Shown: positions 18,830 to 58,194 of the stretch, in pieces
Position numbering within the stretch: the stretch's first letter is position 1
Layout: the number at the start of each line of letters is the position of its first letter
Assembly: GCA_934418125.1 (NCBI GenBank)
Contig: CAKRWT010000005.1
Span: 82,095 to 146,094 of the forward strand
Direction: 5' to 3'
Origin: an uncultured Lachnospiraceae bacterium
GTDB lineage: Bacteria > Bacillota > Clostridia > Lachnospirales > Lachnospiraceae
DNA length: 64,000 bases
Made by a program: the position numbers and the translations under genes
The notes under the pieces: generated by a model
Databases searched by the model: none
What the model was told of the DNA's origin: nothing
What the model saw: only the letters and a program-made list of their open reading frames with translations

Positions 18830-18982
18830 GGTAATTTGGAAAGCTAATATTTGACTAAATGTGTAAGCGATAACCACTTCGGACACGCTTTCGCTTTCGC
18901 TCCGCTCCGGACACAATGGTCCTTCAGTTGGTTATTCACTTCCACAATTTTAAAATCATGCTTTATATAATTTCAAAATTAC
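18830..18982 (-). repeat. Dispersed palindromic repeat, copy A (internally deleted)
   Basis: Shares the ends and right half of copies B (21047) and C (57996). Read on the minus strand it has GTGAATAACC near its left inner end, CGGAGCGGAGCGAAAGCG and GTGTCCGAAGTGGTTATC. Compared with copy C it lacks about 49 bases, exactly the central hairpin, between two ACC triplets, and has an extra GAAAGC. Outer inverted ends GGTAATTT and AAATTAC are still recognisable. Confidence 0.8.
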
Positions 18983-19045
18983 TATTCTCTATTTTACCAT
19001 AAGCGAAGGACACTGACTACCAACAGCGCAGTTTAACAGGTTGAA

Positions 19046-19076
19046 TTGACAGAGGGCAGTCTGACTGTGCTATGAT
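19046..19076 (+). promoter_or_regulatory. Promoter of the hydroxyacid dehydrogenase gene
   Basis: TTGACA at 19046-19051 and an extended -10 TGcTATGAT (hexamer 19071-19076). The spacer is 19 bases, longer than ideal, which the extended -10 may compensate. Confidence 0.6.
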
Positions 19077-19110
19077 ACGGAATAGGAAATAACAGAAATG
19101 GAGAATTGGT

Positions 19111-20097
19111 ATGAAAATATATGCATTTGGTGTGAGAGAAGATGAGCGGGCAGCATTTGAAAAGTATGAAAAAGAGTATGACCTGGAGTTGTCCTGCACG
19201 AAGGAGGTATTAAGCCTCTCCAATATAGATTTGGTAAAGGGGTGTGACGGTGTTACCATTCTGGGCATGCACACTTACGGAAAAGAGGAACTGGACAAGC
19301 TGAAAGAATACGGGGTAAAGTGCCTGACGACAAGAAGCATCGGTTATGACCATATCGATGTGGCGTATGCCAGGGAAATCGGCTTAAAGGTCTGCAATGC
19401 GGCATATCCTCCAACCGGTGTGGCAGAGTATACCATTATGATGATATTGCTTTGTCTTAGAAATTATAAACAGTCCCTGTGGAGAACCCAGGTAAATGAC
19501 TATTCCTTAACCGGTTTAATCGGCAGGGAAATCAACCGTCTTACCATCGGTGTTGTGGGAACCGGGCGTATTGGTATGAAAGTCATTCAGGCATTGTCGG
19601 GCTTTGGTGGTAAAATCATAGCCTATGACCCGCATGAAAATGAGGAAGTAAAAAAATACGCTACCTACGTGTCCTTGGAGGAAGTTTACGCAAAGGCAGA
19701 TGTGATTACCTTCCACATGCCACTGTTGGAGGATACTTACCACATGGTAAACAATGAGAGCATTGCCAGGATGAAAGATGGGGTAGTCCTAATTAACTGT
19801 GCCAGAGGGTCGCTGATGAATATTGATGCCCTGATTGAGAACATTGAGAACTGTAAGATTGGTGCGCTGGGCTTGGACTGTATCGAAGAAGAAGAAGGAA
19901 TTGTCCATAGGAATTTTAAAAGTGATATTATTTCCAACCGGAAAATGGCATATCTGCGCCAGTTCCCCAATGTAGTGCACACGCAGCACATGGCATTTTA
20001 CACCGATGTGGCGGTAGAAAGCATGGTACAGTATGGGCTGTATGGCATTATGGAAATCGTAAATGGCAGGGACTATGCCAATGACCTGACGAAATAA
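19111..20097 (+). CDS. D-isomer-specific 2-hydroxyacid dehydrogenase (D-lactate dehydrogenase/VanH-like)
   Basis: A 328-residue NAD-dependent dehydrogenase that should interconvert a 2-oxoacid and a D-2-hydroxyacid. Residues ~100-300 hold the Rossmann fold with GVVGTGRIG (~147-155). Catalytic residues are Arg in CARGSL (~232), Glu in DCIEEEEG (~262) and His in HTQHMAFY (~295). Length fits D-lactate dehydrogenase. TGGAG precedes the ATG. It is transcribed alone or with the SpoU gene 79 bases downstream, which has its own leader. Substrate (pyruvate or a branched 2-oxoacid) is not certain. Confidence 0.9.
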   Translation: MKIYAFGVREDERAAFEKYEKEYDLELSCTKEVLSLSNIDLVKGCDGVTILGMHTYGKEELDKLKEYGVKCLTTRSIGYDHIDVAYAREIGLKVCNAAYPPTGVAEYTIMMILLCLRNYKQSLWRTQVNDYSLTGLIGREINRLTIGVVGTGRIGMKVIQALSGFGGKIIAYDPHENEEVKKYATYVSLEEVYAKADVITFHMPLLEDTYHMVNNESIARMKDGVVLINCARGSLMNIDALIENIENCKIGALGLDCIEEEEGIVHRNFKSDIISNRKMAYLRQFPNVVHTQHMAFYTDVAVESMVQYGLYGIMEIVNGRDYANDLTK

Positions 20098-20132
20098 AAA
20101 GGTAGACGGAAAGCTGTCCGCGGGAACAGGTA

Positions 20133-20176
20133 GCAACACGACATGCGCCAAGGCATGCGTAGAAATGAGGATTCGT
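20133..20176 (+). promoter_or_regulatory. Shared leader module, copy 1 (before SpoU methyltransferase)
   Basis: Contains ACATGCGCCAAGGCATGCGT followed by AGAAATGAGGATT and the start codon. The same arrangement occurs before the GH3 gene and the M15 peptidase gene. AGAAATGAGG matches the complement of the 16S 3' end (AGAAAGGAGG) at 9 of 10 bases, an extended Shine-Dalgarno site. Confidence 0.6.
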
Positions 20177-20983
20177 ATGGCACATATCATAGAAATAGGG
20201 GATTTTGAAGCACCACAGTTAGACGTTTATGCAAGGCTTTCGGAGAATCAACTGCTGAACAGGCAGGAGCCGGAAAAGGGAATGTTTATCGCAGAAAGTC
20301 CTAAGGTCATTGAGCGTGCACTGGATGCTGGTTGTATTCCGATTTCTTTCCTGATGGAGAGAAAGCATGTGGAAGGAGAGGGCAGGGAGCTGATAGAGCG
20401 TTGCAGCGGACTGCCGGTGTATACGGCACCCTTTGATGTGCTGACGAAACTGACTGGATTTCAGTTGACCAGAGGAATGTTGTGTGCTATGTACCGCCCG
20501 CCACTGCCAGCTGTGGAACAGGTTTGTGAGAAAGCCCGCCGGATTGTGGTTTTGGAAAATGTAGTAAATCCGACCAATGTGGGTGCTATTTTCCGCTCGG
20601 CAGCAGCCCTGCACATGGATGGTATCTTACTGACACCGGCATGCAGCAATCCATTATACCGCCGGGCAATCCGCGTCAGCATGGGAACTGTTTTTCAGAT
20701 TCCATGGACTTTCCTGGAAAAGGACATAAACGCTCTAAAAGAAATGGGCTTTCGTACCGTTGCGATGGCACTGCGGGAAGATTCCATCGGAATTGATGAC
20801 CCACGGCTGCGGGCAGAAGAAAAACTTGCCATTCTTCTGGGAACCGAAGGCGATGGGTTGGCAGACGGAACCATAGCAGACTGTGATTATACGGTCAGAA
20901 TCCCCATGACCCATGGTGTGGATTCCCTCAATGTGGCAGCTGCCAGTGCTGTAGCATTCTGGGAACTGGGAAAAGAGGAATAA
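20177..20983 (+). CDS. SpoU/TrmH-family RNA 2'-O-methyltransferase
   Basis: A 268-residue knotted (SPOUT) methyltransferase that should methylate the 2'-OH of a tRNA or rRNA nucleotide. An N-terminal substrate-binding domain (~1-105, FIAESPKVIERAL) precedes the catalytic domain with motif 1 VLENVVNPTNVGAIFRSA, motif 2 ILLGTEGDGL and motif 3 RIPMTHGVDSLNVAAASAVA. ATG 20177 is chosen because GAGG (20167-20170) is 6 bases upstream; ATG 20165 lies inside that ribosome binding site. Target nucleotide unknown. Confidence 0.9.
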   Translation: MAHIIEIGDFEAPQLDVYARLSENQLLNRQEPEKGMFIAESPKVIERALDAGCIPISFLMERKHVEGEGRELIERCSGLPVYTAPFDVLTKLTGFQLTRGMLCAMYRPPLPAVEQVCEKARRIVVLENVVNPTNVGAIFRSAAALHMDGILLTPACSNPLYRRAIRVSMGTVFQIPWTFLEKDINALKEMGFRTVAMALREDSIGIDDPRLRAEEKLAILLGTEGDGLADGTIADCDYTVRIPMTHGVDSLNVAAASAVAFWELGKEE

Positions 20984-21046
20984 CAAGATAGTACAGCTTC
21001 CATACAAGATATCCCATTGTACCCGATTGTGGAATATTTGATAATA

Positions 21047-21250
21047 AACAGGTAATTAGGAAACCTTGCATTTTTGATAAACATGTGCAAATGAAAACCA
21101 TCTTGGACACGCTTTCGCTCCAATCCAAACGCAGTGGTACATAAACGACTACAATACAGTCGCTAAGTACCAGCGTTTTACCAGGGTCCTGCGATTGGTT
21201 ATTCATCCGCACATGTAGATAAGACAATCATGGTTTCCCACTTACCTGTT
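21047..21250 (-). repeat. Dispersed palindromic repeat, copy B (full length)
   Basis: A 204-bp element with terminal inverted repeats of 53-54 bases: 21047-21099 starts AACAGGTAA and 21197-21250 ends TTACCTGTT, about three quarters identical with one gap. Inside are stems AAACGC/GCGTTT (21127-21132, 21173-21178) and ACGACT/AGTCGC (21145-21150, 21158-21163). The same stems exist in copy C with different bases but kept pairing. It carries no protein gene that looks functional. Confidence 0.85.
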
Positions 21251-21291
21251 TTTTTAGTACATGTACCATTCATCTTATAAATGGGAGGCTA

Positions 21292-21400
21292 GTGTGAAAA
21301 ATCCATATACGAAAGATTTTTCACACACGAGATTTGTGTCTGCGCGCACTTGACACAAACTCGGCATGCGCAAAGAACGTGCGCAGAAATGAGGATTTTT
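21292..21400 (+). promoter_or_regulatory. Three consecutive hairpins plus shared leader module (copy 2) before GH3 gene
   Basis: Hairpin 1: GTGTGAAAAATC (21292-21303) and GATTTTTCACAC (21315-21326), perfect. Hairpin 2: CGAGATTTGTGTC (21328-21340) and GACACAAACTCG (21352-21363), one mismatch. Hairpin 3: GCATGCGC then ACGTGCGC within 21364-21384. AGAAATGAGG follows at the ribosome binding site. The stretch from 21352 to the start codon matches the M15 leader at about 39 of 46 positions. Confidence 0.65.
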
Positions 21401-24271
21401 ATGGAAGCAAATAAGACTACAAAATTCTGGGACAACACATTGCCCATAGAGGAGCGGTTAGACTGGCTGATTGCCAACATGACGATAGAGGAGAAGCTGA
21501 GCTGTCTGTGTTCCAGCGGACCGGCGATAGAGCGGCTGGGCATACCGGGAAGCTATGTGGGAAGTGAAGCTGCCCACGGAATCGAGGCACGGAACGACCA
21601 GAATCCGATTGGCAAGCCGGATTACACCACATCCCTGCCACAGCCCATCGGGATGAGTGCCACCTGGGATAAAGAATTATTGCAGCGGGCAGGCGATATG
21701 GTGGGAAGAGAAGCCAGAGCCCTTTATAAGGTTCGGGACAGAGGCGGCTTATGCCGTTGGGCACCGACTGTGGATTTGGAGCGGGACCCACGCTGGGGCA
21801 GAAATGAGGAAAGCTATGGGGAAGACCCATTGCTTACTGGAGAGATGGCGGGTGCCTATATCAAGGGAATGCAGGGGGATGACCCACGTTACCTGCAGGT
21901 GGCAGCGACCCTGAAGCATTTTTATGGAAATAATACAGAGGATGGCAGAACTTATAAGAGCTCTTCCATCGATTCACGTAATCGTTATGAACTGTACCTG
22001 GAGCCATTCCGTCGTTGTATTGAAGAGGCAGGCGCAGAAGCGGTAATGACCGCCTATAACCGGATTAACGGCACAGTTGGTATGCTGAATCATGAAGTGC
22101 AGGATATTTTGAAGAATCAGTATGGGCTGAAGCATGTAGTCTGCGATGGTGGTGCTTTGGAACTGGTAGTGAGGGATCAGCACTATTTTGAAAGCCATGC
22201 GCAGTCCATTGCAGCTTCGGTCAAGGCTGGTGTGGATGCAATGTCAGACAGGCAGGAGCTGGTAGACGAAGCAGCAAAGGAGGCTTATGAAAAGGGGTTG
22301 CTGACGGAAGAAGAGGTAAATCGGGCGATTCGCAATACTTTCCGTACCAAGCTTCGTCTGGGAATCTATGACAGGGAGAATGAGAACCCTTATGACCGGG
22401 TAACAGAAGCGGATAGAAATACTTTGCAGAATCAGGAGATTTGTAAAGAAGTTTCCAGGGAAAGCATTGTCTTATTAAAAAATGAAAGCAATATACTGCC
22501 ACTTAAAAGTGACGCGGATGTCACAAATATGGCACTGGCAGGTCCTCTGGGCGATGTGTGGTATCAGGACTGGTATGGGGGCACACCGCTTTATCAGAAA
22601 ACACTGCGACAGGGAATCAAGGAAGTGACAGGTAGCGAGATTCCTTTTGCAGATGGGCTGGACAGGGTACTGTTCCGGTGTGGGGATGGTTATCTGGGAA
22701 TCGGAGAGAAAGAACAACTGTGTATCTGTCAGAAGCCGGAGATTTTTATAGAGGAAAACTGGGGCGAGGGCAGTTATACGTATCGCAGTGTACGCACCGG
22801 ACGCTATATGAATCTGGGAAAAAAGGAAGATGGACAAAAAGATGGTGGCAGAATGTATGTTGCCAGCCAGAGAGCTTTTGACTGGTTTGTCTTAGAACGG
22901 ATGCATAAGGAAGAAAGAGAAGATGGGATGGTAATTTTAACAGACCGTTTTGAGAACCCATTACAGGCAGACGATGCAGGAAATTTTTCTTCTGTGAAAA
23001 AGGAAACAGCAGAAGGAACGGCGCTTCGGATGGAAGTGGTAGAGAATGGACTGGAAAAAGCGCTTTCCATCATGCAGGAAAAAGAGATGATTCTGCTGGC
23101 ACTTGGCTGCAATCCGATGATAAACGCCAAGGAGGAAGTGGACAGAAAGACACTGACCCTGCCGCCTTATCAGGAGCGGCTGTTAGAAAAGGCAGCCGGA
23201 TTTGGCAAGCCTGTTATACTGGTGCTGTTTACCAACTATCCCTATGCGATTCTGGAAGCGCAGGCAAAGATTCCGGCAATTATTTCTTCGGCAACCGGCA
23301 GCCAGGATATGGGAACTGCTATGGCAGAAGCTCTTTTTGGCAGGACAGCACCGGCCGGCTGCCTGAATATGACCTGGTATCAAAGTGTGGAGCAGTTACC
23401 GGATATCGACGACTATGACATCATTCAGGGCAAACGGACTTACCGCTATTTTGACGGCGAAGTATTATATCCTTTCGGATATGGCTTGAACTATACTACG
23501 TTTGCTTATGGGAAACTGGAAGTGACCCTGCAGGATAATATGACACATGTGTCAAAATACAGAAAAACACCTTTTACCATACCGGAAGCAATCGGTGTCC
23601 GTTTTGAAGTTACCAATACCGGGGAGAGAACCAGTGACAAAGTGGTGCAGGTTTATGGTGTGGCACCCGCATCCAGAGTGAAGAAGCCAGTGAGCCAGCT
23701 GCTTGCCTTTGAACGGCTTAAGGCAGTAAGACCGGGGGAAACACGCCAGGTAGCCTTTGAAATCCCGGCAGAGGATTTCCGCTTCTATGATGTTATCAGT
23801 GAAAGTCTTATGGTAGAAGAAGGTACTTACCGGATATATGTAGGAGATTCCTGCAAGGCGGAAAAGCTTTCTGCGGCCATTTTCCTTCCGGGAAAGAAAC
23901 CGGGCAATCGCCGGTTGGATAACAGACTGCAGGCAGACCATTACGATACCTGTGAAAATATGATTCTGGTGGAAGGACAGCAGGGCTATACGGCGGTAAC
24001 ACCAAAGCAACCGGAGCAGGAAGGCTTATTGAACTTTATGGATTGTCTGGTTTCCACCTTGCCAGAGCAGATGACACTGGCAGGAATGGGAACGGGAACC
24101 ATCCATCTTTATGCCGATGGGAAATGCTGTGGCAGTTGGAATGGAACCTGTGATACCTGGACAGAAATCCAGATACCGGTAGCGAAAAAGAATGTGGAAT
24201 TTGGCGAGAAAGAAACCTTTTCCCTGCAAATAGGTATTGAAGGGGAAGTGAAACTGTTATATGTTAAGTAA
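21401..24271 (+). CDS. Glycoside hydrolase family 3 enzyme (beta-glucosidase/xylosidase type)
   Basis: A 956-residue GH3 protein. The TIM-barrel domain (~15-340) has RWAPTVDLERDPRWGR and LKHFYGNN; the likely nucleophile is Asp249 in VVCDGGALEL. The alpha/beta sandwich (~365-700) provides the acid/base side and is interrupted by a ~100-residue insert (~445-545, SYTYRSVRTGRYMNLG) that looks like a beta-trefoil or lectin-like fold. A fibronectin III-like domain follows (~725-800, FEVTNTGERTSDKVVQVYG), then a C-terminal carbohydrate-binding-like region (~845-956). No signal peptide, so intracellular. ATG 21401 follows the AGAAATGAGG site; upstream in-frame codons belong to the leader hairpins. 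Specificity uncertain. Confidence 0.92.
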   Translation: MEANKTTKFWDNTLPIEERLDWLIANMTIEEKLSCLCSSGPAIERLGIPGSYVGSEAAHGIEARNDQNPIGKPDYTTSLPQPIGMSATWDKELLQRAGDMVGREARALYKVRDRGGLCRWAPTVDLERDPRWGRNEESYGEDPLLTGEMAGAYIKGMQGDDPRYLQVAATLKHFYGNNTEDGRTYKSSSIDSRNRYELYLEPFRRCIEEAGAEAVMTAYNRINGTVGMLNHEVQDILKNQYGLKHVVCDGGALELVVRDQHYFESHAQSIAASVKAGVDAMSDRQELVDEAAKEAYEKGLLTEEEVNRAIRNTFRTKLRLGIYDRENENPYDRVTEADRNTLQNQEICKEVSRESIVLLKNESNILPLKSDADVTNMALAGPLGDVWYQDWYGGTPLYQKTLRQGIKEVTGSEIPFADGLDRVLFRCGDGYLGIGEKEQLCICQKPEIFIEENWGEGSYTYRSVRTGRYMNLGKKEDGQKDGGRMYVASQRAFDWFVLERMHKEEREDGMVILTDRFENPLQADDAGNFSSVKKETAEGTALRMEVVENGLEKALSIMQEKEMILLALGCNPMINAKEEVDRKTLTLPPYQERLLEKAAGFGKPVILVLFTNYPYAILEAQAKIPAIISSATGSQDMGTAMAEALFGRTAPAGCLNMTWYQSVEQLPDIDDYDIIQGKRTYRYFDGEVLYPFGYGLNYTTFAYGKLEVTLQDNMTHVSKYRKTPFTIPEAIGVRFEVTNTGERTSDKVVQVYGVAPASRVKKPVSQLLAFERLKAVRPGETRQVAFEIPAEDFRFYDVISESLMVEEGTYRIYVGDSCKAEKLSAAIFLPGKKPGNRRLDNRLQADHYDTCENMILVEGQQGYTAVTPKQPEQEGLLNFMDCLVSTLPEQMTLAGMGTGTIHLYADGKCCGSWNGTCDTWTEIQIPVAKKNVEFGEKETFSLQIGIEGEVKLLYVK

Positions 24272-24282
24272 GTAGGAAAATG

Positions 24283-24326
24283 TTTCATAACAGGGAATGA
24301 TTTTCATAACAGGAAGTGATTCCCTG
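24283..24326. promoter_or_regulatory. Tandem 19-bp repeat and inverted repeat upstream of deoC
   Basis: TTTCATAACAGGGAATGAT (24283-24301) is followed directly by the near copy TTTCATAACAGGAAGTGAT (24302-24320). CAGGGAAT (24291-24298) is an exact inverted copy of ATTCCCTG (24319-24326). The arrangement resembles a regulator site in front of deoC. Confidence 0.5.
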
Positions 24327-24392
24327 ACAAGAAGCTGTGAAACAATAAGAAAATCATATCGTAACAGAAAATACGTACACAGGGAGAAAACA

Positions 24393-25046
24393 ATGGATAA
24401 AAAAGAAATCTTAAAACATGTAGACCATACCTTACTGGCACAAACTGCCACCTGGGAGGAAATAAAACAGATTTGTGACGATGCCATGCACTACGGCACG
24501 GCATCTGTCTGTATTCCGGCAAGTTATGTGAAGCAGGCAAAAGAATATGTGCAGGATAACATGGCAGTCTGCACAGTAATCGGTTTTCCTAATGGTTATG
24601 CAACCACTGCCTGTAAGGAATTTGAAACAAAGGATGCCCTTGCAAACGGCGCAGATGAGATTGATATGGTTATCAACTTAGGCTGGGTAAAGGACGGCAG
24701 ATTTGATAAGATGGAAGAAGAAATCCGTATCTTAAAAAAGGCCTGCCGGGATAAAATTCTGAAAGTCATTATTGAAACCTGTCTTCTTACGGAAGCAGAG
24801 AAGATTAAGATGTGTGAAGTAGTAACGGCTGCGGGGGCAGATTATATTAAGACCTCTACCGGTTTCTCCACAGCCGGTGCAACCTTTGCTGATGTGGAAC
24901 TGTTTGCACAGCATGTAGGTGCCGGTGTGAAGATTAAGGCAGCAGGCGGCATCTCCTCCATGGAAGATGCTGAAAAATTCCTGGCACTGGGAGCTGACCG
25001 CCTGGGAACCAGCCGTATTATCAAACTGGTAAAAGCAATGGAATAA
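24393..25046 (+). CDS. deoC: Deoxyribose-phosphate aldolase
   Basis: A 217-residue DERA, cleaving 2-deoxyribose 5-phosphate to glyceraldehyde 3-phosphate and acetaldehyde in deoxynucleoside breakdown. The Schiff-base Lys is in YIKTSTGF (~151) and the second active-site Lys in GVKIKAAGG (~180). VDHTLL near the N-terminus and EIDMVINLG are family signatures. ATG 24393 is chosen with GGGAG 8 bases upstream; the longer in-frame start at 24297 would run through the regulatory repeats. It is not next to other nucleoside genes. It ends one base before the convergent ABC exporter gene. Confidence 0.96.
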
Positions 25047-25047
25047 G

Positions 25048-26841
25048 TTATTTCTGTTCTTTTAGAAAATCAAACTGTGACATATACAGTTTATAGTATT
25101 CGCCTTTCATAGCTAATAACTCTTCGTGAGAACCTCTTTCCAGGATATCCCCCTTGTCCACATACAGAATGCAGTTGGCATTTTTGATGGTGGAAAGCCG
25201 GTGGGCGATGATGAAGGAGGTTCTTCCTTTTAACAGTTCATTCAATCCCTTTTGCAGTAGCAGTTCGGTTTCCGTATCAATGCTGGAGGTTGCCTCATCC
25301 AGAATGAGAATCTTCGGGTTGGCAAGCAGTGCCCTGGCAAAGGAGATAAGCTGCCTTTGTCCGGCAGAAAGGCGGCTGCCCCGTTCATTTACTTCCGTGT
25401 AATAGCCATGTTCCATTTCCATAATAAAATCATGGGCGCATACCGTTTTGGCAGCGCGGATAACAGCTTCATCGGTAGCTGTTTTATTGCCATAGCGGAT
25501 ATTGTCCATAATGGTGCCGGAGAAGATAAAACTGTCCTGCATCATGACGCCCATCTGTGCCCGCAGGGAATGGATGGTAACCTTGGAAATATCCACATCA
25601 TCGATAAGTACCTGACCGGAATCCACATTGTAGAAGCGGCTGATAAGGTTGACGATGGTGGTTTTGCCGGCACCGGTCGGTCCTACAATCGCGAAGGAGT
25701 CACCGGGATTGGCAGTAAAGTTAATATGGTTCAGAATCGGATGTCCTGGCTCATAGCTGAAGCATACGTCCTGAAAGGTTATTTTACCCACAATAGGTGG
25801 CATGGGAACCGCATCCGGTGCATCTTTGACCAAAACCTCTTCATCGATGGTTTCGAAGATACGTTCCAGATAGGAGATGGCAGTGAGCAGGGAGTTATAG
25901 AAGCTCGCCAGCGTGTTAATGGGGTTCCAGAACTGGCTGATATAGGCAGTAAAAGCCACCAGCACACCGACGGTAATACCGCCATCGCCGCTAAGCATCC
26001 AGTTAATACCCAGCACATAGACAAAGGAAGTGGTAATAACGGATATAATATCCACACTGGGTCCCATCAGGAAATTGAACTTTACAGCCCGCATCCAGGA
26101 CTGGCGGTAGCCACGGCTTAAATGGTTGAAAATATCGGTATTTCGCTGCTCACGTGTAAAGGACTGGGTAACCCGTATACCATTGATGCTTTCTGCAATA
26201 TAGGCATTTAAGTTGGACTGTTTGTTACTCTGAATCTGCCAGGCGCGGCGCTGCTTTTTCTTAATCACAATAATCACGAGGATTAAAACCGGCAAACCAC
26301 ACAGACAGATAAGGGTCAGTCTCACGTTAATAAATAGCATGAACAGGAGAATAAAAACCAGGTTACACAGGTCGGTAATGGTGTTGATGATACCATTACT
26401 TAACAGGTCACTTAAACTGTTTACATAATTTACTACACGTACCTGAATTTTGCCATGCGGCCTGTCATCATAATAGGAAAAAGGCAATTCCTGTAAATGT
26501 TTAAAGATGTCATAGCGAATCTGGTAAATAACGTTTTGTCCCAGTTCGTTTGTTACCTTGATTTTGTAACGTAAGCTGATACAGGCATATAAGGCAATTA
26601 ACAGAGTCAGACCGGCATACTTGAAAATTGTGTGCATATCCTTTGCAGGAATACAGTCATCCATAACCCGCATCAGAAACTGCGGTATCAGCATGGATAA
26701 TGCGGAGGAGGACAGCATCAGAAAAATAACGAAAAGCATGGGCTTGCGGTAAGGGGTAATGTAGCTGGCAAGCCGCTTTAACTGCCCCAGGTCAAAGTGG
26801 TCTTCTAACACTTCATCTACATCATAAGTATTTCTAGCCAT
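25048..26841 (-). CDS. ABC exporter half-transporter, canonical ATPase partner
   Basis: A 597-residue fusion of a six-helix exporter membrane domain (~20-320) and an ATPase domain (~350-597). Walker A is GPTGAGKTT, signature LSAGQRQ, Walker B ILILDEATSSID with catalytic Glu and the H-loop IIAHRLST with His. The start has AAGGAG just upstream. It is the second gene of a two-gene operon, 27 bases after its partner. The two should form a heterodimeric multidrug or peptide exporter in which this subunit provides the intact hydrolysis site residues. Confidence 0.94.
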   Translation of the reverse strand: MARNTYDVDEVLEDHFDLGQLKRLASYITPYRKPMLFVIFLMLSSSALSMLIPQFLMRVMDDCIPAKDMHTIFKYAGLTLLIALYACISLRYKIKVTNELGQNVIYQIRYDIFKHLQELPFSYYDDRPHGKIQVRVVNYVNSLSDLLSNGIINTITDLCNLVFILLFMLFINVRLTLICLCGLPVLILVIIVIKKKQRRAWQIQSNKQSNLNAYIAESINGIRVTQSFTREQRNTDIFNHLSRGYRQSWMRAVKFNFLMGPSVDIISVITTSFVYVLGINWMLSGDGGITVGVLVAFTAYISQFWNPINTLASFYNSLLTAISYLERIFETIDEEVLVKDAPDAVPMPPIVGKITFQDVCFSYEPGHPILNHINFTANPGDSFAIVGPTGAGKTTIVNLISRFYNVDSGQVLIDDVDISKVTIHSLRAQMGVMMQDSFIFSGTIMDNIRYGNKTATDEAVIRAAKTVCAHDFIMEMEHGYYTEVNERGSRLSAGQRQLISFARALLANPKILILDEATSSIDTETELLLQKGLNELLKGRTSFIIAHRLSTIKNANCILYVDKGDILERGSHEELLAMKGEYYKLYMSQFDFLKEQK

Positions 26842-26868
26842 GGTAAGCTCCTTTCTATATAGAATAAT

Positions 26869-34812: not shown

Positions 34813-35062
34813 TGCTGTGGCATGATAGCTAAGAAGCGTGAGGTTGCTGTCCACTGGACAGGTTTTTCCGTGGAGCGAATGTCAAGTTAGGAAACTGACG
34901 ACAAGTCACTGTACAACAAACAAAGAACGTCTGGCATAGCCAGAAACGACGTGGTTAGTGATTCTGAATGAGCGTTAAGATTTAGGACACACACGGGAGA
35001 GTGTACAGTCACCGCTTGTCGTACTTAGAAATTAAAAGTGCGAAAAGGAGGCGACTTTTTTT
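34813..35062 (+). ncRNA. Structured 5' leader of the S10 operon
   Basis: About 250 non-coding bases. A hairpin CTGTCC/GGACAG lies at 34847-34861. ACGACAAG (34898-34905) and ACTGTACA (34908-34915) pair with CTTGTCGT (35015-35022) and TGTACAGT (35002-35009), closing a multibranch region that includes the hairpin TCTGGC/GCCAGA near 34930-34945. AAGGAGG follows and precedes ATG 35063. This is the position where ribosomal-protein autoregulation acts in other bacteria; the regulator here is not identifiable. Confidence 0.6.
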
Positions 35063-45867: not shown

Positions 45868-45881
45868 TCTATAAAAGTTAT

Positions 45882-49291: not shown

Positions 49292-49377
49292 TCTGATTAT
49301 TTATCAGCAGCAACCCAAATACTTGGAAGAAGGCGCGTAAGCGTTGTAAACAAAATGAAAAGAGAGGAGCCAAAACA

Positions 49378-49971: not shown

Positions 49972-50010
49972 GCATAGCATTTAAACATGTTCGTAAAGGA
50001 GGGTATTTGA

Positions 50011-50970: not shown

Positions 50971-51119
50971 GAACATAAAAGACACAGGAGATAAGTCCAA
51001 AAGGCACTGCTGTGTCAACTCATGAATGGAACTATTAACGCATTCGGTAAGTAAGTCCAAAGAGCGTGGCCGGATGTACCATGGCGGGAGAGAACTCCCC
51101 AGTGAGAAAGGAGCCTATT
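50971..51119 (+). other. Structured gap between rpoA and rplQ
   Basis: 149 bases with a hairpin GACACAG/CTGTGTC (50981-50987, 51010-51016). AAGTCCAAA occurs twice at about 50993 and 51054. A GGGAGA/TCTCCC-like element lies close to the ribosome binding site. May control L17 synthesis. Confidence 0.45.
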
Positions 51120-51656: not shown

Positions 51657-51702
51657 GAACAGAGCTGTCCGATAACAAAGGCTTCATGAAAATTTATCAT
51701 AC

Positions 51703-51740
51703 AAAAAACCGACACTCCTTCGTGGGTGCCGGTTTTTTGC
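51703..51740 (+). terminator. Bidirectional intrinsic terminator after rplQ
   Basis: AAAAAACCG (51703-51711) pairs with CGGTTTTTT (51730-51738), with inner CAC/GTG pairing. The A-run on the left serves as T-run for the convergent M15 peptidase gene, so it works for both strands. Confidence 0.9.
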
Positions 51741-51751
51741 TTTTATTCCAG

Positions 51752-52786
51752 TCAGTCGATTGCTTTCTGGAAATGCTGGTAGTCTTTGCAGGAATTCCAG
51801 TCCCCACCCCAGGTAAAACCATGTTCTTTAAAGAGACGGTAGCATAAATCAGATTCATCAATTTTATAGGCGAAGCTCTGGCTTCTGTCAGCGTAGATTT
51901 CACTGCCGGCAGGAGAAATATAAGTTTCACCGGTTCCGTTTTTATTAAATACCACGTAGGGGTTGTAGAAGGGATTGATATCAATGGCCAGTCCATAAGC
52001 ATGCTTGGAAAGGCTGGTTGTGCCATCTACTACACGATAGTTAAAGCAGGAAGTATTATTTTCCATCATGGAGAGGGTATCGTCTCCGTCATATTCATCA
52101 ATCAGGCGAATCTGTTCTATCTGGTAGTCATTTTGGTACAACTCATAGAAAATTTCTACCATGTCCTGTGCAATTTCCTTATTGCAGATAAGTTCGCCAT
52201 CCTGTTCTTTTCCATCAAAATCAAGATAAGTAACACGTACATAACGCAAGTCCTCATAAGGGACGGTACAGCCGGCTTCCGGATAGCTGATTCCGGTGAT
52301 GCGGGCTTTGATAGTGTCGTCTAAAGGCTCGTAGGAAAAGCCGGGCTGATAAGTAATGCGGTCTGGATTGTCAGTCATGTCTGTCTGCTCCTTGGATTCT
52401 TCTTGTTTAGTATATGCGCTTTCCGAGGTTGTGTCTTCGTTTTTTGCCGGAACAGTTTTGGCTTCATTGCCTGTTTTGGCTTCATCGCCTGTTTTGGCTT
52501 CATCGCCTGTTTTGTCTGTGTTCTGGGAGCCGCCCGTTTCTTCCGCTGAAATGCTGTCATCTACTGTGGTGGTATCTGTCCCAGCTTCTTGTGTACTGCC
52601 ATAAGCTGCTTCCGGGTTATTCCTGGCGTATTCGGACAGGGTTTCCGAATCGGTCAGATAGCGGGCAAGGAAGCCACAGATAAGAACCAGTGCAAGCAGG
52701 AATAAAAAAGGGGGACCGGCCTGTTTTAGCAGTTGGTTTCGACAGGGGAGTTTCCCGCCGGTTTTCGGAGAGTGATTCTGTGTCAT
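51752..52786 (-). CDS. M15-family D-Ala-D-Ala carboxypeptidase-like membrane protein
   Basis: A 344-residue protein with one N-terminal membrane helix (~25-43, PPFLFLLALVLICGFLA), a long Thr/Glu/Lys-rich linker (~50-140) and a zinc peptidase domain (~190-344). Zinc and catalytic residues are in SLSKHAYGLAIDINP (His, Asp), GFTWGGDW and DYQHFQK (His). Probably trims cell-wall peptides outside the membrane. ATG 52786 follows AGAAATGAGG; the ATG inside that site (52798) is rejected. It splits the usual rplQ-ecfA1 junction on the opposite strand. Confidence 0.88.
   Translation of the reverse strand: MTQNHSPKTGGKLPCRNQLLKQAGPPFLFLLALVLICGFLARYLTDSETLSEYARNNPEAAYGSTQEAGTDTTTVDDSISAEETGGSQNTDKTGDEAKTGDEAKTGNEAKTVPAKNEDTTSESAYTKQEESKEQTDMTDNPDRITYQPGFSYEPLDDTIKARITGISYPEAGCTVPYEDLRYVRVTYLDFDGKEQDGELICNKEIAQDMVEIFYELYQNDYQIEQIRLIDEYDGDDTLSMMENNTSCFNYRVVDGTTSLSKHAYGLAIDINPFYNPYVVFNKNGTGETYISPAGSEIYADRSQSFAYKIDESDLCYRLFKEHGFTWGGDWNSCKDYQHFQKAID
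52455..52514 (-). repeat. 18-bp tandem repeat in the M15 linker
   Basis: Three copies of an 18-bp unit (52455-52472, 52473-52490, 52491-52508; one variant base) plus a partial copy. They encode a TGDEAK-type six-residue repeat in the wall-spanning linker. Confidence 0.9.
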
Positions 52787-52834
52787 GTTAATCCTCATTT
52801 CTGTGCACGCGCTTAGCGCATGCCGGGTTTGTGC
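52787..52834 (-). promoter_or_regulatory. Shared leader module, copy 3 (before M15 gene)
   Basis: On the minus strand: ACAAACCCGGCATGCGC, TAA, GCGCGTGC, ACAGAAATGAGGATT, then the start codon. GCATGCGC and GCGCGTGC form a hairpin with one G-U pair. An extended -10 TGaTATACT lies further upstream (52847-52852). Confidence 0.65.
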
Positions 52835-52850
52835 TAGTCTGAAAATAGTA

Positions 52851-53001
52851 TATCACATGTTACTGTGCACAGATAGTATTCCGCGAGGTGTTTTGCAAAG
52901 CAAAATCCCGAGAATCGCAAGTGCCAAATGCAATTTATTGCATTTGTGTACATAGATTATTGCTGGAACGAGGGATGAGTGAACAGCAATTATCACATGT
53001 T
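52851..53001. repeat. MITE-like element flanked by 11-bp direct repeats
   Basis: TATCACATGTT occurs at 52851-52861 and again at 52991-53001, exactly 140 bases apart. The ~129 bases between have imperfect inverted ends (CTGTGCAC near the left, GTGAACAG at the right). Inner hairpins are GTTTTGC/GCAAAAT around 52892-52909, CAAATGCAAT/ATTGCATTTG (52925-52946) and ATTGCTG/CAGCAAT (about 52959-52990). No gene inside. Confidence 0.5.
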
Positions 53002-53028
53002 GCATATTTCTCCTATGCTAGAATTTCC

Positions 53029-53057
53029 TTGTATTTTCCAATGTAATCTAGTAAAAT
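53029..53057 (+). promoter_or_regulatory. Promoter of the ECF operon
   Basis: TTGTAT (53029-53034), 17-base spacer, TAAAAT (53052-53057), 52 bases before ATG 53109. Confidence 0.65.
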
Positions 53058-53108
53058 AAGCGTTGATGTAGCATATTGTAAACTATGTTACCGAAAAGGA
53101 TGACAATA

Positions 53109-53975
53109 ATGGGAATTATTAAGACAGATAAATTAGTTTATGAATATATCAGGCGCGATGAAGAGGGCAATGTAGAGGGCATTACCCGTGCAGTCGATGA
53201 AGTGGACATTGATGTAAAACAGGGCGATTTTGTAGCGATTCTGGGACATAATGGTTCCGGTAAATCCACTCTTGCCAAACATATCAATGCCATTCTCTAT
53301 CCTACAGAAGGTGCTGTCTGGGTGGATGGCATGAACACCAGGGACGAAAAGGATTTGTGGAATATCAGACAGGAAGCAGGTATGGTATTTCAGAACCCGG
53401 ATAACCAGATTATCGGTCAGGTGGTCGAGGAAGATGTAGGATTTGGACCGGAGAATATGGGAGTACCAACAGAGGAAATCTGGGAGCGTGTAGAGGAAAG
53501 CCTGAAGGCGGTAGATATGTATGAATATCGGAAACACTCACCCAATAAGCTTTCAGGGGGGCAGAAGCAGAGAGTTTCCATCGCAGGTGTGATTGCCATG
53601 CATCCGAAGTGCATTATTCTGGATGAGCCCACGGCGATGCTTGACCCGAATGGACGAAAAGAGGTAGTACGTGCCGTCAGGGCGTTAAATGATGTGGAGG
53701 GCATTACCATTGTCCTCATTACGCATTATATGGAAGAAATTATTCATGCGGATAAGGTATTTGTAATGGATAAGGGAAAAGTGGCTATGGAAGGAACTCC
53801 TTATGAAATCTTTTCCCAGGTAGAGCGATTAAAGGAACTGCGTCTGGATGTACCACAGGTTACCTTACTGGCACATGAACTGAAACAGAGAGGACTGGAT
53901 TTACCGGATGGCATTTTGACGGTGGAAGAACTGACAGATGCATTGATGAAAGAAAGGGCACAGAAATGTCTTTGA
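53109..53975 (+). CDS. ecfA1: Energy-coupling factor transporter ATPase EcfA1
   Basis: A 288-residue ATPase of the shared ECF module that powers vitamin uptake with separate S components. Walker [10 protein letters not shown] at 46-54, LSGGQKQ signature and [16 protein letters not shown] 53109 fits AAAGGA spacing best. Its 3' end overlaps ecfA2 by 10 bases. No S-component gene is nearby, as expected for the group II shared module. Confidence 0.95.
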
Positions 53976-54814
53976 TATTAGACCATGTGAATTATGTATA
54001 TGGAGATGATACTGCACTGGCAGTACATGCATTAAAGGATGTGAATCTGGTAATTCCGGAAGGACAATTTATCGGTCTTATCGGACATACCGGTTCTGGC
54101 AAATCCACCCTGGTACAGCATTTAAACGGACTGATTAAGCCTACCAGTGGGGCGATTTACTTTAATGGGGAAGATATCCATGCAGAGGATTATGATAAGA
54201 AGAAGCTGCGCAGCAAGGTTGGGCTGGTGTTTCAGTATCCGGAGCATCAGTTGTTTGAGATAGATGTGTTTACAGATGTCTGCTTTGGCCCTAAGAATCT
54301 GGGCTTATCCAAGCAGGAAACAGAGCTCCGTGCTTATGCAGCATTGAAACAGGTAGGCTTGGAGGATGAATATTTCTATCAGTCCCCCTTTGACCTTTCC
54401 GGTGGACAGAAGAGAAGAGTTGCCATTGCCGGGGTACTTGCCATGAAACCGGATATCCTGATTCTGGACGAGCCTACGGCGGGGCTGGACCCTAAGGGAA
54501 GAGATGAGATTCTTGATCAGATTGCAAAGTTAAAAGAGGAAACAGGCATTACGGTCATCCTGGTATCTCACAGTATGGAAGATGTTGCAAAATATGTGGA
54601 GCGGATTATTGTCATGAACCATGGCAGTGTGCTCTATGACGACACACCGAAGGAAGTATTCAAGCATTATAAGGAGCTGGAAGAGGTCGGGCTTGCAGCA
54701 CCCCAGGTAACTTATATTATGCAGGCACTGGCGAAGCGTGGACTGCCGGTAGCAACGGATGCCACGACGATTGAAGAAGCCAGGGATGAGATTTTAAGAG
54801 CGATGAACAAGTAA
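53966..54814 (+). CDS. ecfA2: Energy-coupling factor transporter ATPase EcfA2
   Basis: A 282-residue partner ATPase: Walker [10 protein letters not shown], signature [13 protein letters not shown], Walker [14 protein letters not shown]. Overlaps ecfA1, and ecfT follows within 31 bases. EcfA1-EcfA2 form the motor bound by EcfT. Confidence 0.95.
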
Positions 54815-54845
54815 CGAAGAAAAGAAAAAAGATTGGAGTATGGAT

Positions 54846-55646
54846 ATGATTCGAGATATCACACTGGGCCAGTATTATCAGGCAGACTCTGTCATTCATA
54901 AACTGGACCCACGGGTAAAGCTGGTAGCGACTATCTGCTTTATCATATCTTTGTTTGTAGTGCAGAACTGGGTAGGTTATGTGGTGGCAGCTGTTTTTCT
55001 GGCAGCTATGATTAAGTTGTCTAAGGTTCCGTTTAAATTCATGGTAAAAGGAATGAAAGCGATAGTCTTTATTCTGTTGATTACCCTGTTGTTTAACCTG
55101 TTCCTGACACCGGGAGAGCCGCTCATTACCATCTGGAAGTTAAAAATTACAAAGGAAGGCTTACGAATTGCCGTGATGATGGCGGTCCGTTTATGTTTTT
55201 TAATTATCGGTTCTTCCATTATGACATTAACGACTACCCCGAACAGCCTGACAGATGGTATGGAGAAGCTGATGAAGCCGCTGAAGATATTCCGCGTACC
55301 GGTGCATGAGGTGGCAATGATGATGTCCATCGCACTGCGTTTTATTCCCATTTTATTAGAAGAGACCGATAAGATTATGAAAGCACAGATTGCCAGAGGC
55401 GCCGATTTTGAAAGTGGTAATCTGATTAAGAAGGCAAAGGCAATGGTGCCATTGTTAGTACCATTATTTATCTCCGCGTTCCGTAGAGCCAACGATTTGG
55501 CGATGGCAATGGAAGCCAGATGTTATCGTGGAGGAGAACATCGGACGAAAATGAAGCCGTTAATCTACCACAAGAGGGATTATATCGGCTATACCATACT
55601 GGCATGTTATTTTGCACTGTGCATTACCATCCGCATTGTATTTTAA
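54846..55646 (+). CDS. ecfT: Energy-coupling factor transmembrane protein EcfT
   Basis: A 266-residue membrane protein with about five hydrophobic segments and the two coupling motifs ARGAD (near 178) and ARCYRG (near 222) that dock into the ATPases. ATG 54846 leaves 7 bases to GGAG; ATG 54840 is too close. Confidence 0.95.
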   Translation: MIRDITLGQYYQADSVIHKLDPRVKLVATICFIISLFVVQNWVGYVVAAVFLAAMIKLSKVPFKFMVKGMKAIVFILLITLLFNLFLTPGEPLITIWKLKITKEGLRIAVMMAVRLCFLIIGSSIMTLTTTPNSLTDGMEKLMKPLKIFRVPVHEVAMMMSIALRFIPILLEETDKIMKAQIARGADFESGNLIKKAKAMVPLLVPLFISAFRRANDLAMAMEARCYRGGEHRTKMKPLIYHKRDYIGYTILACYFALCITIRIVF

Positions 55647-55712
55647 AAAAGGAAAGCTGTATAGCAGCGATTTTGCGAAGAGCCCATAGGTTCTTGCAGA
55701 AATGAGGAAATT

Positions 55713-56450
55713 ATGAAACGAGTTATGCTGACAGTTGCCTATGATGGAACCAACTATCATGGCTGGCAGATACAACCAAATGGAGAGACAATAGAAGGCA
55801 TCCTGAACAGATGCCTTTCTGTGCTTTTAGGGGAAAAAATTGCAGTCATAGGAGCCAGCCGGACAGACTCCGGCGTGCATGCCATGGGAAATGTTGCTGT
55901 TTTTGATACGGAAAGTCCTATTCCGGCAGAGAAAATGTCTTATGCCCTGAATCAGAGACTGCCGGAGGATATACGGATTCAGAAAGCAGAAGAAGTAGCT
56001 TCTGATTTTCATCCAAGGCACTGTGCCAGCCGGAAAACCTATGAATACCGGATTTATAATGCGCCCTTCCCAATGCCGGTAAGAAGACTGTACAGCTATT
56101 TTACTTATGTGCCTCTTGCTATAGAACGTATGCGTCAGGGGGCAGCTTATCTGGTGGGAGAACATGATTTTAAGAGCTTTTGCAGCGTGCAGGCACAGGT
56201 GGAGAGCACCATACGTCAGATAGATGCGGTAGAAGTATTACAGGAAAATCAGGAAATCGTTATCCGGGTATCCGGCAGGGGATTTCTCTATAATATGGTA
56301 CGGATTATTGCAGGAACTTTGATGGAAGTAGGAAGAGGGCATATTGAGCCGGAAAAGGTAGATGAGATTCTCAGGGCAAAAGACCGGCAGGCAGCAGGTC
56401 CTACAGCCCCCGCCTGTGGTCTTACCCTGATAAAATATGAATTCCTTTAA
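55713..56450 (+). CDS. truA: tRNA pseudouridine(38-40) synthase TruA
   Basis: A 245-residue synthase. Catalytic Asp52 lies in SRTDSGVHAMGN; GRGFLYNMVRIIAGTLMEVG and the C-terminal AGPTAPACGLTL are family signatures. Leader has GCAGAAATGAGGA before the start. Its stop overlaps the convergent GH43 stop by about 4 bases. In other Firmicutes rplM follows directly; here it is 6.6 kb away. Confidence 0.97.
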   Translation: MKRVMLTVAYDGTNYHGWQIQPNGETIEGILNRCLSVLLGEKIAVIGASRTDSGVHAMGNVAVFDTESPIPAEKMSYALNQRLPEDIRIQKAEEVASDFHPRHCASRKTYEYRIYNAPFPMPVRRLYSYFTYVPLAIERMRQGAAYLVGEHDFKSFCSVQAQVESTIRQIDAVEVLQENQEIVIRVSGRGFLYNMVRIIAGTLMEVGRGHIEPEKVDEILRAKDRQAAGPTAPACGLTLIKYEFL

Positions 56451-57958
56451 TCGTTCTGATAATGGCAGTTAAAGTCTGTGAAAACAGCAGTATTACCACC
56501 GATAGCATAAAGTCCCAGGACAACGCCGGTAAAACCGCCAGCCACTTCGCTGGATAGATATTTAGAGTAGCCCATGCCCAGATAGGTTTCTTCTGGAGCT
56601 GGTGTATCGGTAACTATCGCATCGGTGTTGGAAGTCACATAGAAGTGATAAGTAAGGCTGTCGGAACGGACAATCAGCTTCGCACTGTTTCCCGTTACCG
56701 GAATCACGGACTGGATATGCTTGGCACTGCCAATGTTAATCTTTAAGACTGCTTCATATCCTGACGCGCCTTTTCGCAGGGCAATATCATAATGTTCCAG
56801 TTCATCCATATAGACAGTAAGACCTGCTTCGCCCTGGTTTAAGGAAAGGGCAACGCTGGTTGTCATGGTAAAATCCTTCTGACGGATTCCCAGGAACGTA
56901 GGTGAGTCAGCTTCCTCTAAAGTAATAGCGGTTCCATGCAGGGTCAGTTTATTCTCAGCCATTTCATACTGCCCGGTATGTGGATGACGCAGGTAAATCC
57001 AGTCCAGATTCCAGTCGGTATTCTGGAAGGTATAGGTGTTTTTAACTTCCTGGACAAAATCACCGGCAATCTCATAAGAGGCTTCGGTGGTGCCATCGTT
57101 GCCACAGGTAAACCAGCCGTCTGCATCGAAGGTAACCGGGGTAAGGAATGTTTCCCTGCCAAGATGGTGAAAAGGCTGCCATTTATGAATCTGGCGGAAA
57201 CCAAGGGTCAGGATAAACCAGTCGCCGTTTGCTTTCTGCACCAGGTCTCCGTGACCGATACCCTGGATGATTTCCGGAGCCTTGTTACGATTAGTTAATA
57301 CCGGATTCTTTGGATAGTTCTCGAAAGGTCCCCAGATATTGTCGGATTTGGCATAGGCAACCATGTGGCCATATTCCGTACCGCCTTCCGCCACCATCAG
57401 ATAGTAGGTGTCTCCGATGCGATACATGTGTGGGCTTTCCAGATAACGGCCACCGGCACCCTGCCAGATAGCCTTACTGGGGGAAAGCTTCTTACCGGTC
57501 TGAATATCAATTTCACACTGGATAACACTGTTTACGCCATTTTCATCCTGTCCATTGCTGATAAAATATGCGTGACCATTATCAAACAGCAGGGAAGGGT
57601 CAATGCCACCCTGGTCTACGGTAATCGGCTCGGACCACTCGCCGTAGATGTCATCGGTATAAACATAGAAGTTTTCTTCCGTGGTATTGTTGTTGGTTAC
57701 CATGTAGAAGCGTCCCTCATGATAACGGATAGTCGGGGCAAACACACCGCCGGAACTGTTTACTTTTTCTAACATGACCTGGCTTTTGCGGGTCAGCACA
57801 TGTCCAATCTGTTTCCAGTTGACCAAATCTTCACTTTCAAATAGTGGTACACCAGGAAGGAACTGAAAAGAACTGCAAGTAAGGTAAAATTTGCCATTTG
57901 CTTCGCAGACACTGGGGTCCGGGTAGAAGCCTTTTACAACAGGGTTAGTATAACGCAT
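56447..57958 (-). CDS. Glycoside hydrolase family 43 enzyme (beta-xylosidase/arabinofuranosidase type)
   Basis: A 503-residue two-domain GH43. The five-bladed propeller (~1-310) has catalytic base Asp14 (FYPDPSV), pKa modulator Asp120 (GGIDPS) and acid Glu174 (YLESPHMY). The C-terminal beta-sandwich (~325-503) is the usual accessory domain of GH43 xylosidases. No signal peptide, so it should act on imported xylo-oligosaccharides. Leader TTCAGAAATGAGGA precedes the start. Specificity between xylose and arabinose cannot be fixed from sequence alone. Confidence 0.93.
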   Translation of the reverse strand: MRYTNPVVKGFYPDPSVCEANGKFYLTCSSFQFLPGVPLFESEDLVNWKQIGHVLTRKSQVMLEKVNSSGGVFAPTIRYHEGRFYMVTNNNTTEENFYVYTDDIYGEWSEPITVDQGGIDPSLLFDNGHAYFISNGQDENGVNSVIQCEIDIQTGKKLSPSKAIWQGAGGRYLESPHMYRIGDTYYLMVAEGGTEYGHMVAYAKSDNIWGPFENYPKNPVLTNRNKAPEIIQGIGHGDLVQKANGDWFILTLGFRQIHKWQPFHHLGRETFLTPVTFDADGWFTCGNDGTTEASYEIAGDFVQEVKNTYTFQNTDWNLDWIYLRHPHTGQYEMAENKLTLHGTAITLEEADSPTFLGIRQKDFTMTTSVALSLNQGEAGLTVYMDELEHYDIALRKGASGYEAVLKINIGSAKHIQSVIPVTGNSAKLIVRSDSLTYHFYVTSNTDAIVTDTPAPEETYLGMGYSKYLSSEVAGGFTGVVLGLYAIGGNTAVFTDFNCHYQND

Positions 57959-57995
57959 AATGGATTCCTCATTTCTGAATTATTATTTAAGATGG

Positions 57996-58194
57996 GGTAA
58001 TTGTGACATTATTAGATGATTGATTTACGATATACAAATGAATAACCAGTCGAAGGACCCTTGTAGGACGCTGGTATTTAGTGGCTGTATTTTAGCCACT
58101 TATGTACCATTGCGTCCGGAGCGGAGCGAAAGCGTGTCCGAGATGGTTATTCGGTTGCATATCGTTTTCGTATTTCTACAGAGTCGCAATTACC
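57996..58194 (+). repeat. Dispersed palindromic repeat, copy C (full length)
   Basis: A ~199-bp element with inverted ends (GGTAATTGTGAC at 57996-58007; GTCGCAATTACC ending 58194). Inner inverted repeat 58028-58047 and 58145-58164 match at 17 of 20 positions. Central hairpins: GGACGC/GCGTCC (58066-58071, 58112-58117), GGTA/TACC and GTGGCT/AGCCAC (58081-58086, 58094-58099). It fills the gap upstream of GH43 and before the ABC operon promoter. Confidence 0.85.

What the first reader, a model, noticed from the sequence alone, without database searches (positions are those of the whole stretch)
18830..58194. Three copies of a ~200-bp palindromic repeat with covarying internal hairpins
Copies lie at 18830-18982 (minus), 21047-21250 (minus) and 57996-58194 (plus). 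B and C have ~50-base inverted ends and two nested central stems. The stems differ in sequence but keep pairing: GGACGC/GCGTCC in C is AAACGC/GCGTTT in B, and GTGGCT/AGCCAC in C is GCGACT/AGTCGT (read on the minus strand) in B. Such compensatory changes imply selection on a folded RNA or single-stranded DNA rather than drift of a dead transposon. Copy A has lost exactly the central hairpin between two ACC triplets. All copies sit in gaps beside glycoside hydrolase or dehydrogenase genes.
Basis: seen in the sequence. Interest (0 to 1): 0.75.

Follow-up and report, generated by a model that had tools for sequence, protein, structure and literature searches.

The report
Gut-bacterial jumping repeat with RNA-like core
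The three repeats belong to a large, apparently unnamed family of small jumping DNA elements in gut Lachnospiraceae bacteria; at least in one genome they share their ends with enzyme-coding jumping elements, and they carry the same elaborately folded core, which looks like a conserved RNA whose job is unknown.

Summary
Copies A, B and C exist; B and C fold far better than chance and differ by paired changes. They belong to a family built on a ~97-nt core: a junction stem, a long arm with a conserved U·U mismatch, frequent tandem G·A and a bulged U, and a tiny GNRA hairpin. A covariance model finds it in 88 of 200 Lachnospiraceae species genomes, with 118 copies in one genome and 141 in another. 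No Rfam family matched in the scans made. On a free alignment of 95 cores, 29 of 31 pairs show compensatory changes. It is also a mobile element. In genome G604, 30 of 36 copies have target duplications, and four resident IS4-family elements have nearly the same ends. In G005 different ends give 9-12 bp duplications at 11 of 55 copies. The glycoside-hydrolase link does not extend to the family. Gene orientation shows no common rule, so a cis-riboswitch is unlikely. Whether the core acts as RNA or single-stranded DNA, and what it does, is unproven. New variant of a known kind.

The parts
57996..58194 (+). Copy C, complete element: ~50-nt imperfect inverted arms (GGTAA...TTACC) around the core
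   Evidence: read; RNA fold z -9.0; no target duplication found at its ends
58050..58146 (+). Core of copy C (junction stem, long arm, GNRA hairpin)
   Evidence: R1 85.7 bits, E 1.8e-20 in a search of 63 sources; first row of A2 and A7, so part of the model's training set
58126..58133 (+). GNRA mini-hairpin GC-GAAA-GC of copy C
   Evidence: read; GNRA in 91 of 95 aligned cores
21047..21250 (-). Copy B, complete element, between a SpoU methylase gene and a GH3 gene, both on the + strand
   Evidence: read; RNA fold z -9.2; neighbours
21098..21194 (-). Core of copy B
   Evidence: R1 82.1 bits, E 1.7e-19; part of the training set
18830..18998 (-). Copy A, element with the long arm deleted, upstream of the GH2-type gene 16960-18795 (-)
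   Evidence: read
18874..18927 (-). Core remnant of copy A: junction stem and GNRA hairpin kept, long arm lost
   Evidence: R1 22.9 bits, E 0.0028; same kind of loss read by eye in G005 loci L244, L254, L258

Best explanation
Each copy is a non-autonomous transposable element (a MITE) of about 160-240 bp. A transposase made by a resident insertion sequence recognises its terminal repeats and inserts it into gaps between genes. Supported for genome G604: it has nearly the same ends as resident IS4-family elements and makes 10-bp target duplications. The ends differ between lineages (G005 has other ends and 9-12 bp duplications), but the inner ~97-nt core is the same: a junction stem, a long arm with conserved mismatches, and a GNRA hairpin. 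The core is under selection as a folded single strand, most likely RNA made when the element is transcribed from outside. It probably serves the element's own spread or its tolerance by the host, not one neighbouring gene. Inferred, not shown: that the strand is RNA, that this transposase moves it, and what the core does. My split: mobile element 0.95; core selected as a strand-specific fold 0.8; RNA rather than single-stranded DNA about 0.6-0.65.
For: Mobility: G604, 30 of 36 delimited copies (of 40 fetched) with duplications by a loose rule; in a first 19, 17 had >=9 of 10 matching, against 33 of 342 mismatched flank pairs. Four IS4-family elements in G604 with ends within 0-2 mismatches of the element's end pattern (L390, L395, L400, L402 among 13 fetched of 16 PF01609 places; NF033592 above cut-off), two of the four with perfect 10-bp duplications. 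G005: 11 of 55 copies with >=8 of 9 matching, about 0.2 expected from mismatched flanks. Core: A7, 95 sequences aligned without the model, 87.8% of cells paired (shuffled 67.0), 645 cells changed on both sides (shuffled 183), score 0.566 against 0.192 shuffled and at most 0.146 slid. GNRA in 91 of 95. Unpaired U, U, U, A, G kept in 41/41, 41/41, 40/43, 43/43, 41/43 of the 43 representatives in A4 (gaps excluded). Retention: 39 of 39 short end-to-end pairs in the listed part enclose a core. Six copies of a 158-bp subfamily lost most of one arm yet kept the core and, by eye, target duplications.
Against: No expression data. No convincing dedicated promoter: sites >=8 bits in 21 of 119 5' arms, 19 of 119 3' arms, 20 of 119 shuffled; a small median difference, p 0.03. 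No common orientation rule relative to genes. The G.U versus A.C test for a strand-specific fold is inconclusive: 40 against 24 distinct events outside the basal arm helix (p 0.06), 22 against 21 in it; by cells 74 against 61; the arms lean the other way, 230 against 347. Core-less elements and copies without the long arm exist in G005, one (L244) with a duplication read by eye as 11 of 13 bases, so the long arm is not strictly needed to move there. Single copies carry mutations in conserved core positions. The window copies show no target duplication, and duplications were not tested systematically outside G604 and G005.
Confidence: 0.6

Rival explanations
1. Same mobile element, but the core works as single-stranded DNA: a hairpin formed on one strand during replication that the transposase or a host factor uses.
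For: No clear promoter and no common orientation rule relative to genes. GCGAAAGC, the commonest hairpin (34 of 78), is also known as an unusually stable DNA mini-hairpin (recalled). Core kept in 39 of 39 short end-to-end pairs in the listed part for G604.
Against: The loop follows the RNA GNRA rule in 91 of 95; of the four other loops none is GNYA, which a DNA hairpin might also allow. Tandem G.A and U.U motifs are RNA-like. Copies without the long arm exist, one with a duplication (L244).
Confidence: 0.25
2. No function of the core. Imperfect palindromes are mended by template switching during replication, which produces paired changes without selection.
For: Each copy's arms match each other far better than randomly paired arms (median score 21.6 against 8.2), even though an arm is dispensable in the 158-bp subfamily. 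A paired change between G604 subfamilies is seen in the arms (L329, L330). G.U and A.C are about equal in the basal helix.
Against: Template switching should erase mismatches, yet U.U, tandem G.A (43 of 78), a bulged U and the GNRA hairpin persist across the family while flanking pairs change. The core is shared between lineages whose ends differ.
Confidence: 0.12
3. Cis-regulatory leader or riboswitch-like element of the neighbouring genes.
For: In G005 the right end often lies, by eye, 15-25 nt before a ribosome-binding site, and that genome alone leans to the same strand as both neighbours, 27 against 11; copy A lies just upstream of the GH2-type gene.
Against: Across 185 copies: same strand as both neighbours 61, opposite to both 66, genes pointing away 23, genes pointing towards it 35 (tandem arrays of G116 add to the 66). 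In G007, 11 of 17 copies sit between convergent genes. Neighbouring genes are unrelated.
Confidence: 0.04
4. Intrinsic terminator or REP-like palindrome kept for the host.
For: Strong hairpin, between genes, often next to gene ends in G007.
Against: No constant T-run after the hairpin seen by eye in the flanks listed, occurrence upstream of genes, target duplications, size and three-way core.
Confidence: 0.05

Closest known systems
bcr1 repeats of the Bacillus cereus group
   Same: Interspersed non-coding mobile repeat of similar size, up to 130 copies per genome (passages of PMC6542083); a stem-loop family with predicted conserved structure (passages of PMC2267715).
   Different: [quoted passage not shown] Here the ends are nearly those of DDE insertion sequences in G604, with 10-bp duplications. 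bcr1 itself was not aligned here.
MITEs derived from IS4-family insertion sequences
   Same: Ends nearly shared with complete IS4-family elements in the same genome, 10-bp target duplications.
   Different: A core shared with elements that have different ends in other lineages, with RNA-like conserved features.
IStrons (group I intron plus insertion sequence)
   Same: A conserved RNA fold travelling with a DNA transposon; only the start of an abstract was seen in a listing (PMC4227781).
   Different: No group I intron or other Rfam family at gathering score at the copies in the window or in 12 core-bearing loci (which also held two rRNA loci, the only ones with matches); permissive scans gave only four (copy C) and two (7 loci) matches, all below gathering score. 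No protein gene in the element.
REP / CGTC-tagged palindromes
   Same: Dispersed palindromes between genes, often in pairs.
   Different: REPs are 20-40 bp (abstract start); the CGTC class was reported from five phyla not including this one (passages of PMC3733652). Here the CGYC is paired inside a ~97-nt core.
BOX, ERIC, Correia and other structured bacterial MITEs
   Same: Structured small repeats spread in gaps between genes (recalled; three review passages, PMC10969869).
   Different: Not compared by alignment here; hosts and sequence differ as far as recalled.

Membership tests
MITE (non-autonomous DNA transposon) | Terminal inverted repeats | tested here: met
   G604 CAATGTCATTWAGTTAAG ends; G005 TAGRCNNTTGCGAAAC ends; window arms GGTAA..TTACC
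MITE (non-autonomous DNA transposon) | Target-site duplications | tested here: met
   Met in G604, 30 of 36, and G005, 11 of 55. Not found at the three window copies; not seen by eye in G093; not tested systematically elsewhere
MITE (non-autonomous DNA transposon) | Autonomous partner with the same ends | tested here: met
   Met in G604: four IS4-family elements, ends within 0-2 mismatches. Outside G604 no fetched PF01609 locus had a matching end on both sides (30 of 35 places fetched over five genomes; no pattern of its own was used for G064). Untestable for the window, no genome held
MITE (non-autonomous DNA transposon) | No transposase gene inside | tested here: met
   158-191 bp in 35 of the 36 G604 copies delimited; one call of 316 bp overran into a second end
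Derivative of the IS4-family element itself | Core present in the parent insertion sequence | tested here: not met
   R1 finds nothing at E<=1 in 14 of the 30 fetched PF01609 loci, the four partners included
Rfam structured RNA family | Match at or above a family's gathering score | tested here: not met
   gathering; permissive, nothing at gathering score
Cis-regulatory leader / riboswitch | Consistent same-strand position upstream of genes | tested here: not met
   G005 alone leans that way
Cis-regulatory leader / riboswitch | Related downstream genes | tested here: not met
   58 of 138 eligible downstream genes scanned, no Pfam family above 2 members
Small RNA gene | Own promoter and transcript | tested here: inconclusive
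   promoter scan near background; no transcript data available
REP element | 20-40 bp palindrome | tested here: not met
   size
REP element | Linked RAYT transposase | not tested
   no search made

The most novel reading that the evidence does not exclude
A single structured RNA module has been picked up again and again by different transposition systems in gut Lachnospiraceae. It is an RNA passenger that makes a host element succeed whatever transposase moves it, by acting in the read-through transcript or on the transposition machinery: an RNA that hops between transposons.
Probability: 0.35. Interest if true: 0.85.

Novelty: new variant of a known kind. Interest (0 to 1): 0.62.

Why it matters
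A structured element present in 88 of 200 sampled species of a major gut family, with over 100 copies in some genomes, matched no Rfam family in the scans made. If the core is RNA, it gives a rare testable case of a conserved RNA fold that helps DNA transposons regardless of the transposase. The partner insertion sequences named here make a simple laboratory test possible.

Tried and rejected
Rejected: (1) 5'-leader role. An early reading of divergent pairs in G005 (note) suggested it; the counts over several genomes removed it as a general rule, although G005 alone leans that way. (2) Core-less elements or transposases between the G005 ends: 20 places fetched where no core had been listed gave an R1 match at 17 (at four of these the match at that place has only E 0.0047-0.098); core-less ~143-bp elements with the same outer ends exist (L263, L264); no transposase found between ends in the places read. 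(3) Strand test by G·U against A·C: inconclusive. (4) Dedicated promoter: near background. (5) Matches of the first pattern in 23S rRNA (L012, L022, L072) and coding DNA were set aside as chance; of 81 genome stretches I kept 12 as complete family members by eye; L041 may be a further, rearranged one and was left out. (6) Presence/absence: at one locus G093 has the element and G821 (97% alike) does not, about 180 bp; only a few bases of microhomology, so insertion and clean loss cannot be told apart. (7) Nearest relatives for the window: best 84% over a ribosomal-protein stretch among 346 scored genomes, 51 not scored, so no empty-site test for the window.

Biases: the 12 outside seeds were chosen with GCGAAAGC fixed, so their loop is no evidence; later copies came through the model. 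The second G604 set was picked for low scores, so I drew no rate from it. For A7, 2 of 78 representatives (L156:1792-1955, L201:2849-2938) were left out and 19 of the 42 rows added. Loci fetched were mostly the best-scoring ones, and tandem copies count several times. Genes there were called by my own simple script, not by an annotation tool.

Literature: eight searches. Searches returned no paper; I saw only titles and abstract starts, and none described this family. Passages of four papers were seen. Only this open library was searched. The Drum and skipping-rope RNA motifs, recalled as possible relatives, were covered only by the Rfam scans.
Full report
WHAT IS THERE. Copies A (18830-18998, -), B (21047-21250, -) and C (57996-58194, +) are confirmed. 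B and C have inverted arms of about 50 nt around a core, and as RNA they fold with z-scores near -9. The short motif GCGAAAGCGTGTCCNNNNTGG is present three times in the window, 0.14 expected.

FAMILY. A scan of genome contigs with that motif gave 81 stretches, of which I judged 12 to carry the complete core by eye; the others look like rRNA, coding DNA or chance. With B and C they gave a 14-row alignment and a covariance model, R1. R1 finds copies in 88 of 200 species of the family of G007. That family contains genomes whose loci are titled Lachnospiraceae (G001, G002, G003), and the window's ribosomal-protein stretch fits it at 84% identity at best. Spread: 5 of 398 across the phylum with stricter filters, four of the five (G007, G003, G186, G347) being in the family sample; 19 of 21 in the genus of G604; 0 in each of three unrelated genomes. 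Copy numbers reach 118 in G604 and 141 in G612; in G005 100, with 150 of 794 candidates scored.

STRUCTURE. From outside in: a variable outer stem that runs into the arms; a junction stem (GGAC/GTCC in C, varying elsewhere); a long arm with a two-base bulge ending in U, a symmetric U·U mismatch and, in 43 of 78 representatives, a tandem G·A; and a two-pair hairpin with a GNRA loop. On A7 (95 sequences, aligned by MAFFT without the model) 87.8% of cells pair, against 67.0% shuffled. 29 of 31 pairs have compensatory changes, 645 cells changed on both sides against 183 shuffled, and sliding the partners collapses the signal. On the first 14 rows the figures were 20 of 32 pairs and 87.4%. The loop is GNRA in 91 of 95 (GAAA 45, GAGA 30, GCAA 7, GGAA 5, GCGA 4). 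Several unpaired bases vary less than most paired ones. The structure was drawn from 14 of these sequences by hand, so the paired percentage is partly built in; the compensatory counts are the stronger figure, but related sequences are not independent.

MOBILITY. In G604 the element starts and ends with CAATGTCATTWAGTTAAG. In the first set, 17 of 19 copies had at least 9 of 10 matching bases on the two sides; the mismatched control was 33 of 342, raised because the targets share a motif. Over both sets 30 of 36 delimited copies, of 40 fetched, have a duplication by a looser rule. Many insertions lie, by eye, inside another palindromic repeat. Four IS4-family insertion sequences in the same genome have ends within 0-2 mismatches of the element's end pattern; two of the four have perfect 10-bp duplications, the other two 4 and 2 of 10. 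None contains the core. In G005 the ends are different (TAGRCNNTTGCGAAAC) and 11 of 55 copies have duplications of 9-12 bp, about 0.2 expected. No PF01609 locus fetched from G005, G007, G064 or G093 had a matching end on both sides. For the window no genome is held and its copies show no duplication, so its mobility is inferred from the family.

CORE AND ENDS ARE SEPARABLE. The core is common while the ends differ between G604, G005, G007 and the window. G064 has ends like those of G005. In G604, 39 of 39 short end-to-end pairs in the listed part of the pattern search enclose a core; of 22 unpaired ends 16 have a core nearby, three belong to insertion sequences and three have none. Six copies of a 158-bp form lost most of the right arm by deletion between two GCGCGTCC repeats and still show duplications by eye. 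Against this, in G005 core-less elements share the outer ends, and copies lacking the long arm exist, one with a duplication read by eye as 11 of 13 bases (L244); window copy A has the same kind of loss. So the core is usually kept, but is not strictly required for movement in every lineage.

NOT A GENERAL GENE REGULATOR. Among 185 copies the neighbours run with the element in 61, against it in 66, away on both sides in 23 and towards it in 35. Single genomes have preferences: in G005 27 with against 11 opposed, often upstream of a ribosome-binding site; in G007 between convergent genes (11 of 17). The 3' end lies nearer a gene than the 5' end in 138 of 185. The 58 downstream genes scanned (of 138 eligible) are unrelated, so the glycoside hydrolase neighbours in the window are a local matter.

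RNA OR DNA. For RNA: the GNRA rule, tandem G·A and U·U. Against or neutral: no clear promoter, no common orientation rule, and a G·U over A·C excess that is weak (40 to 24 events, p 0.06) and absent in the basal helix or reversed in the arms. Template switching in palindromes can mimic compensation and probably does so in the arms; it does not explain conserved mismatches.

MECHANISM, COMMITTED. A resident insertion sequence supplies the transposase (inferred in G604 from nearly shared ends and duplications of the same length, assumed elsewhere). The element lands in gaps between genes. The core forms on one strand, most likely in RNA read through from a neighbour, and helps the element persist or spread (inferred). 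I put RNA at 0.6-0.65, single-stranded DNA at about 0.25 and no function at about 0.12.

KNOWN OR NEW. No Rfam family matches at gathering score in the window apart from an S10 leader elsewhere, nor in 12 core-bearing loci, and only sub-threshold matches appear at permissive thresholds. Eight searches of the open library showed no description. Structured bacterial MITEs such as bcr1 are known, so the kind is known. The new aspect is one RNA-like core shared by elements with different ends.

Noticed in passing
window 34823-34904 (+): S10-Clostridia ribosomal protein leader, 91.4 bits in Rfam, ahead of a run of + strand ORFs.
   Followed up: no
window 52455-52517: Short tandem repeat of GTTTTGGCTTCATYGCCTGTTTTGGCT, 18-base period, three copies, inside ORF 51752-52798 (-).
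   Followed up: no
window 5364-5444: 27-base direct repeat AAAAAGCGGCGAT.. in three tandem copies inside ORF 4132-5628.
   Followed up: no
L263:1317-1459, L264:895-1037 (G005): A second, core-less element type of about 143 bp shares the outer 16 bp with the core-bearing elements in the same genome.
   Followed up: partly
L173, L174, L175, L176, L179 (G116): Tandem arrays of 2-4 cores with periods of 137-211 bp, unlike most copies elsewhere.
   Followed up: no
G604, for example L315 and L316: The element inserts into another palindromic repeat (GTAACAGTTCAGCC..GGCTGAACTGTTAC), itself not characterised.
   Followed up: no
L253 and L134, L190, L195 (G005): Copies in which the long arm is replaced by, or accompanied by, another hairpin (TTACGGTTTGCAACCGTAA-like), seen at several places.
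   Followed up: partly
G007 loci L223-L237: The consensus of 18 copies shows a further conserved, partly palindromic stretch of roughly 150 nt just outside the 5' end; by eye the 3' end often abuts a stop codon.
   Followed up: partly
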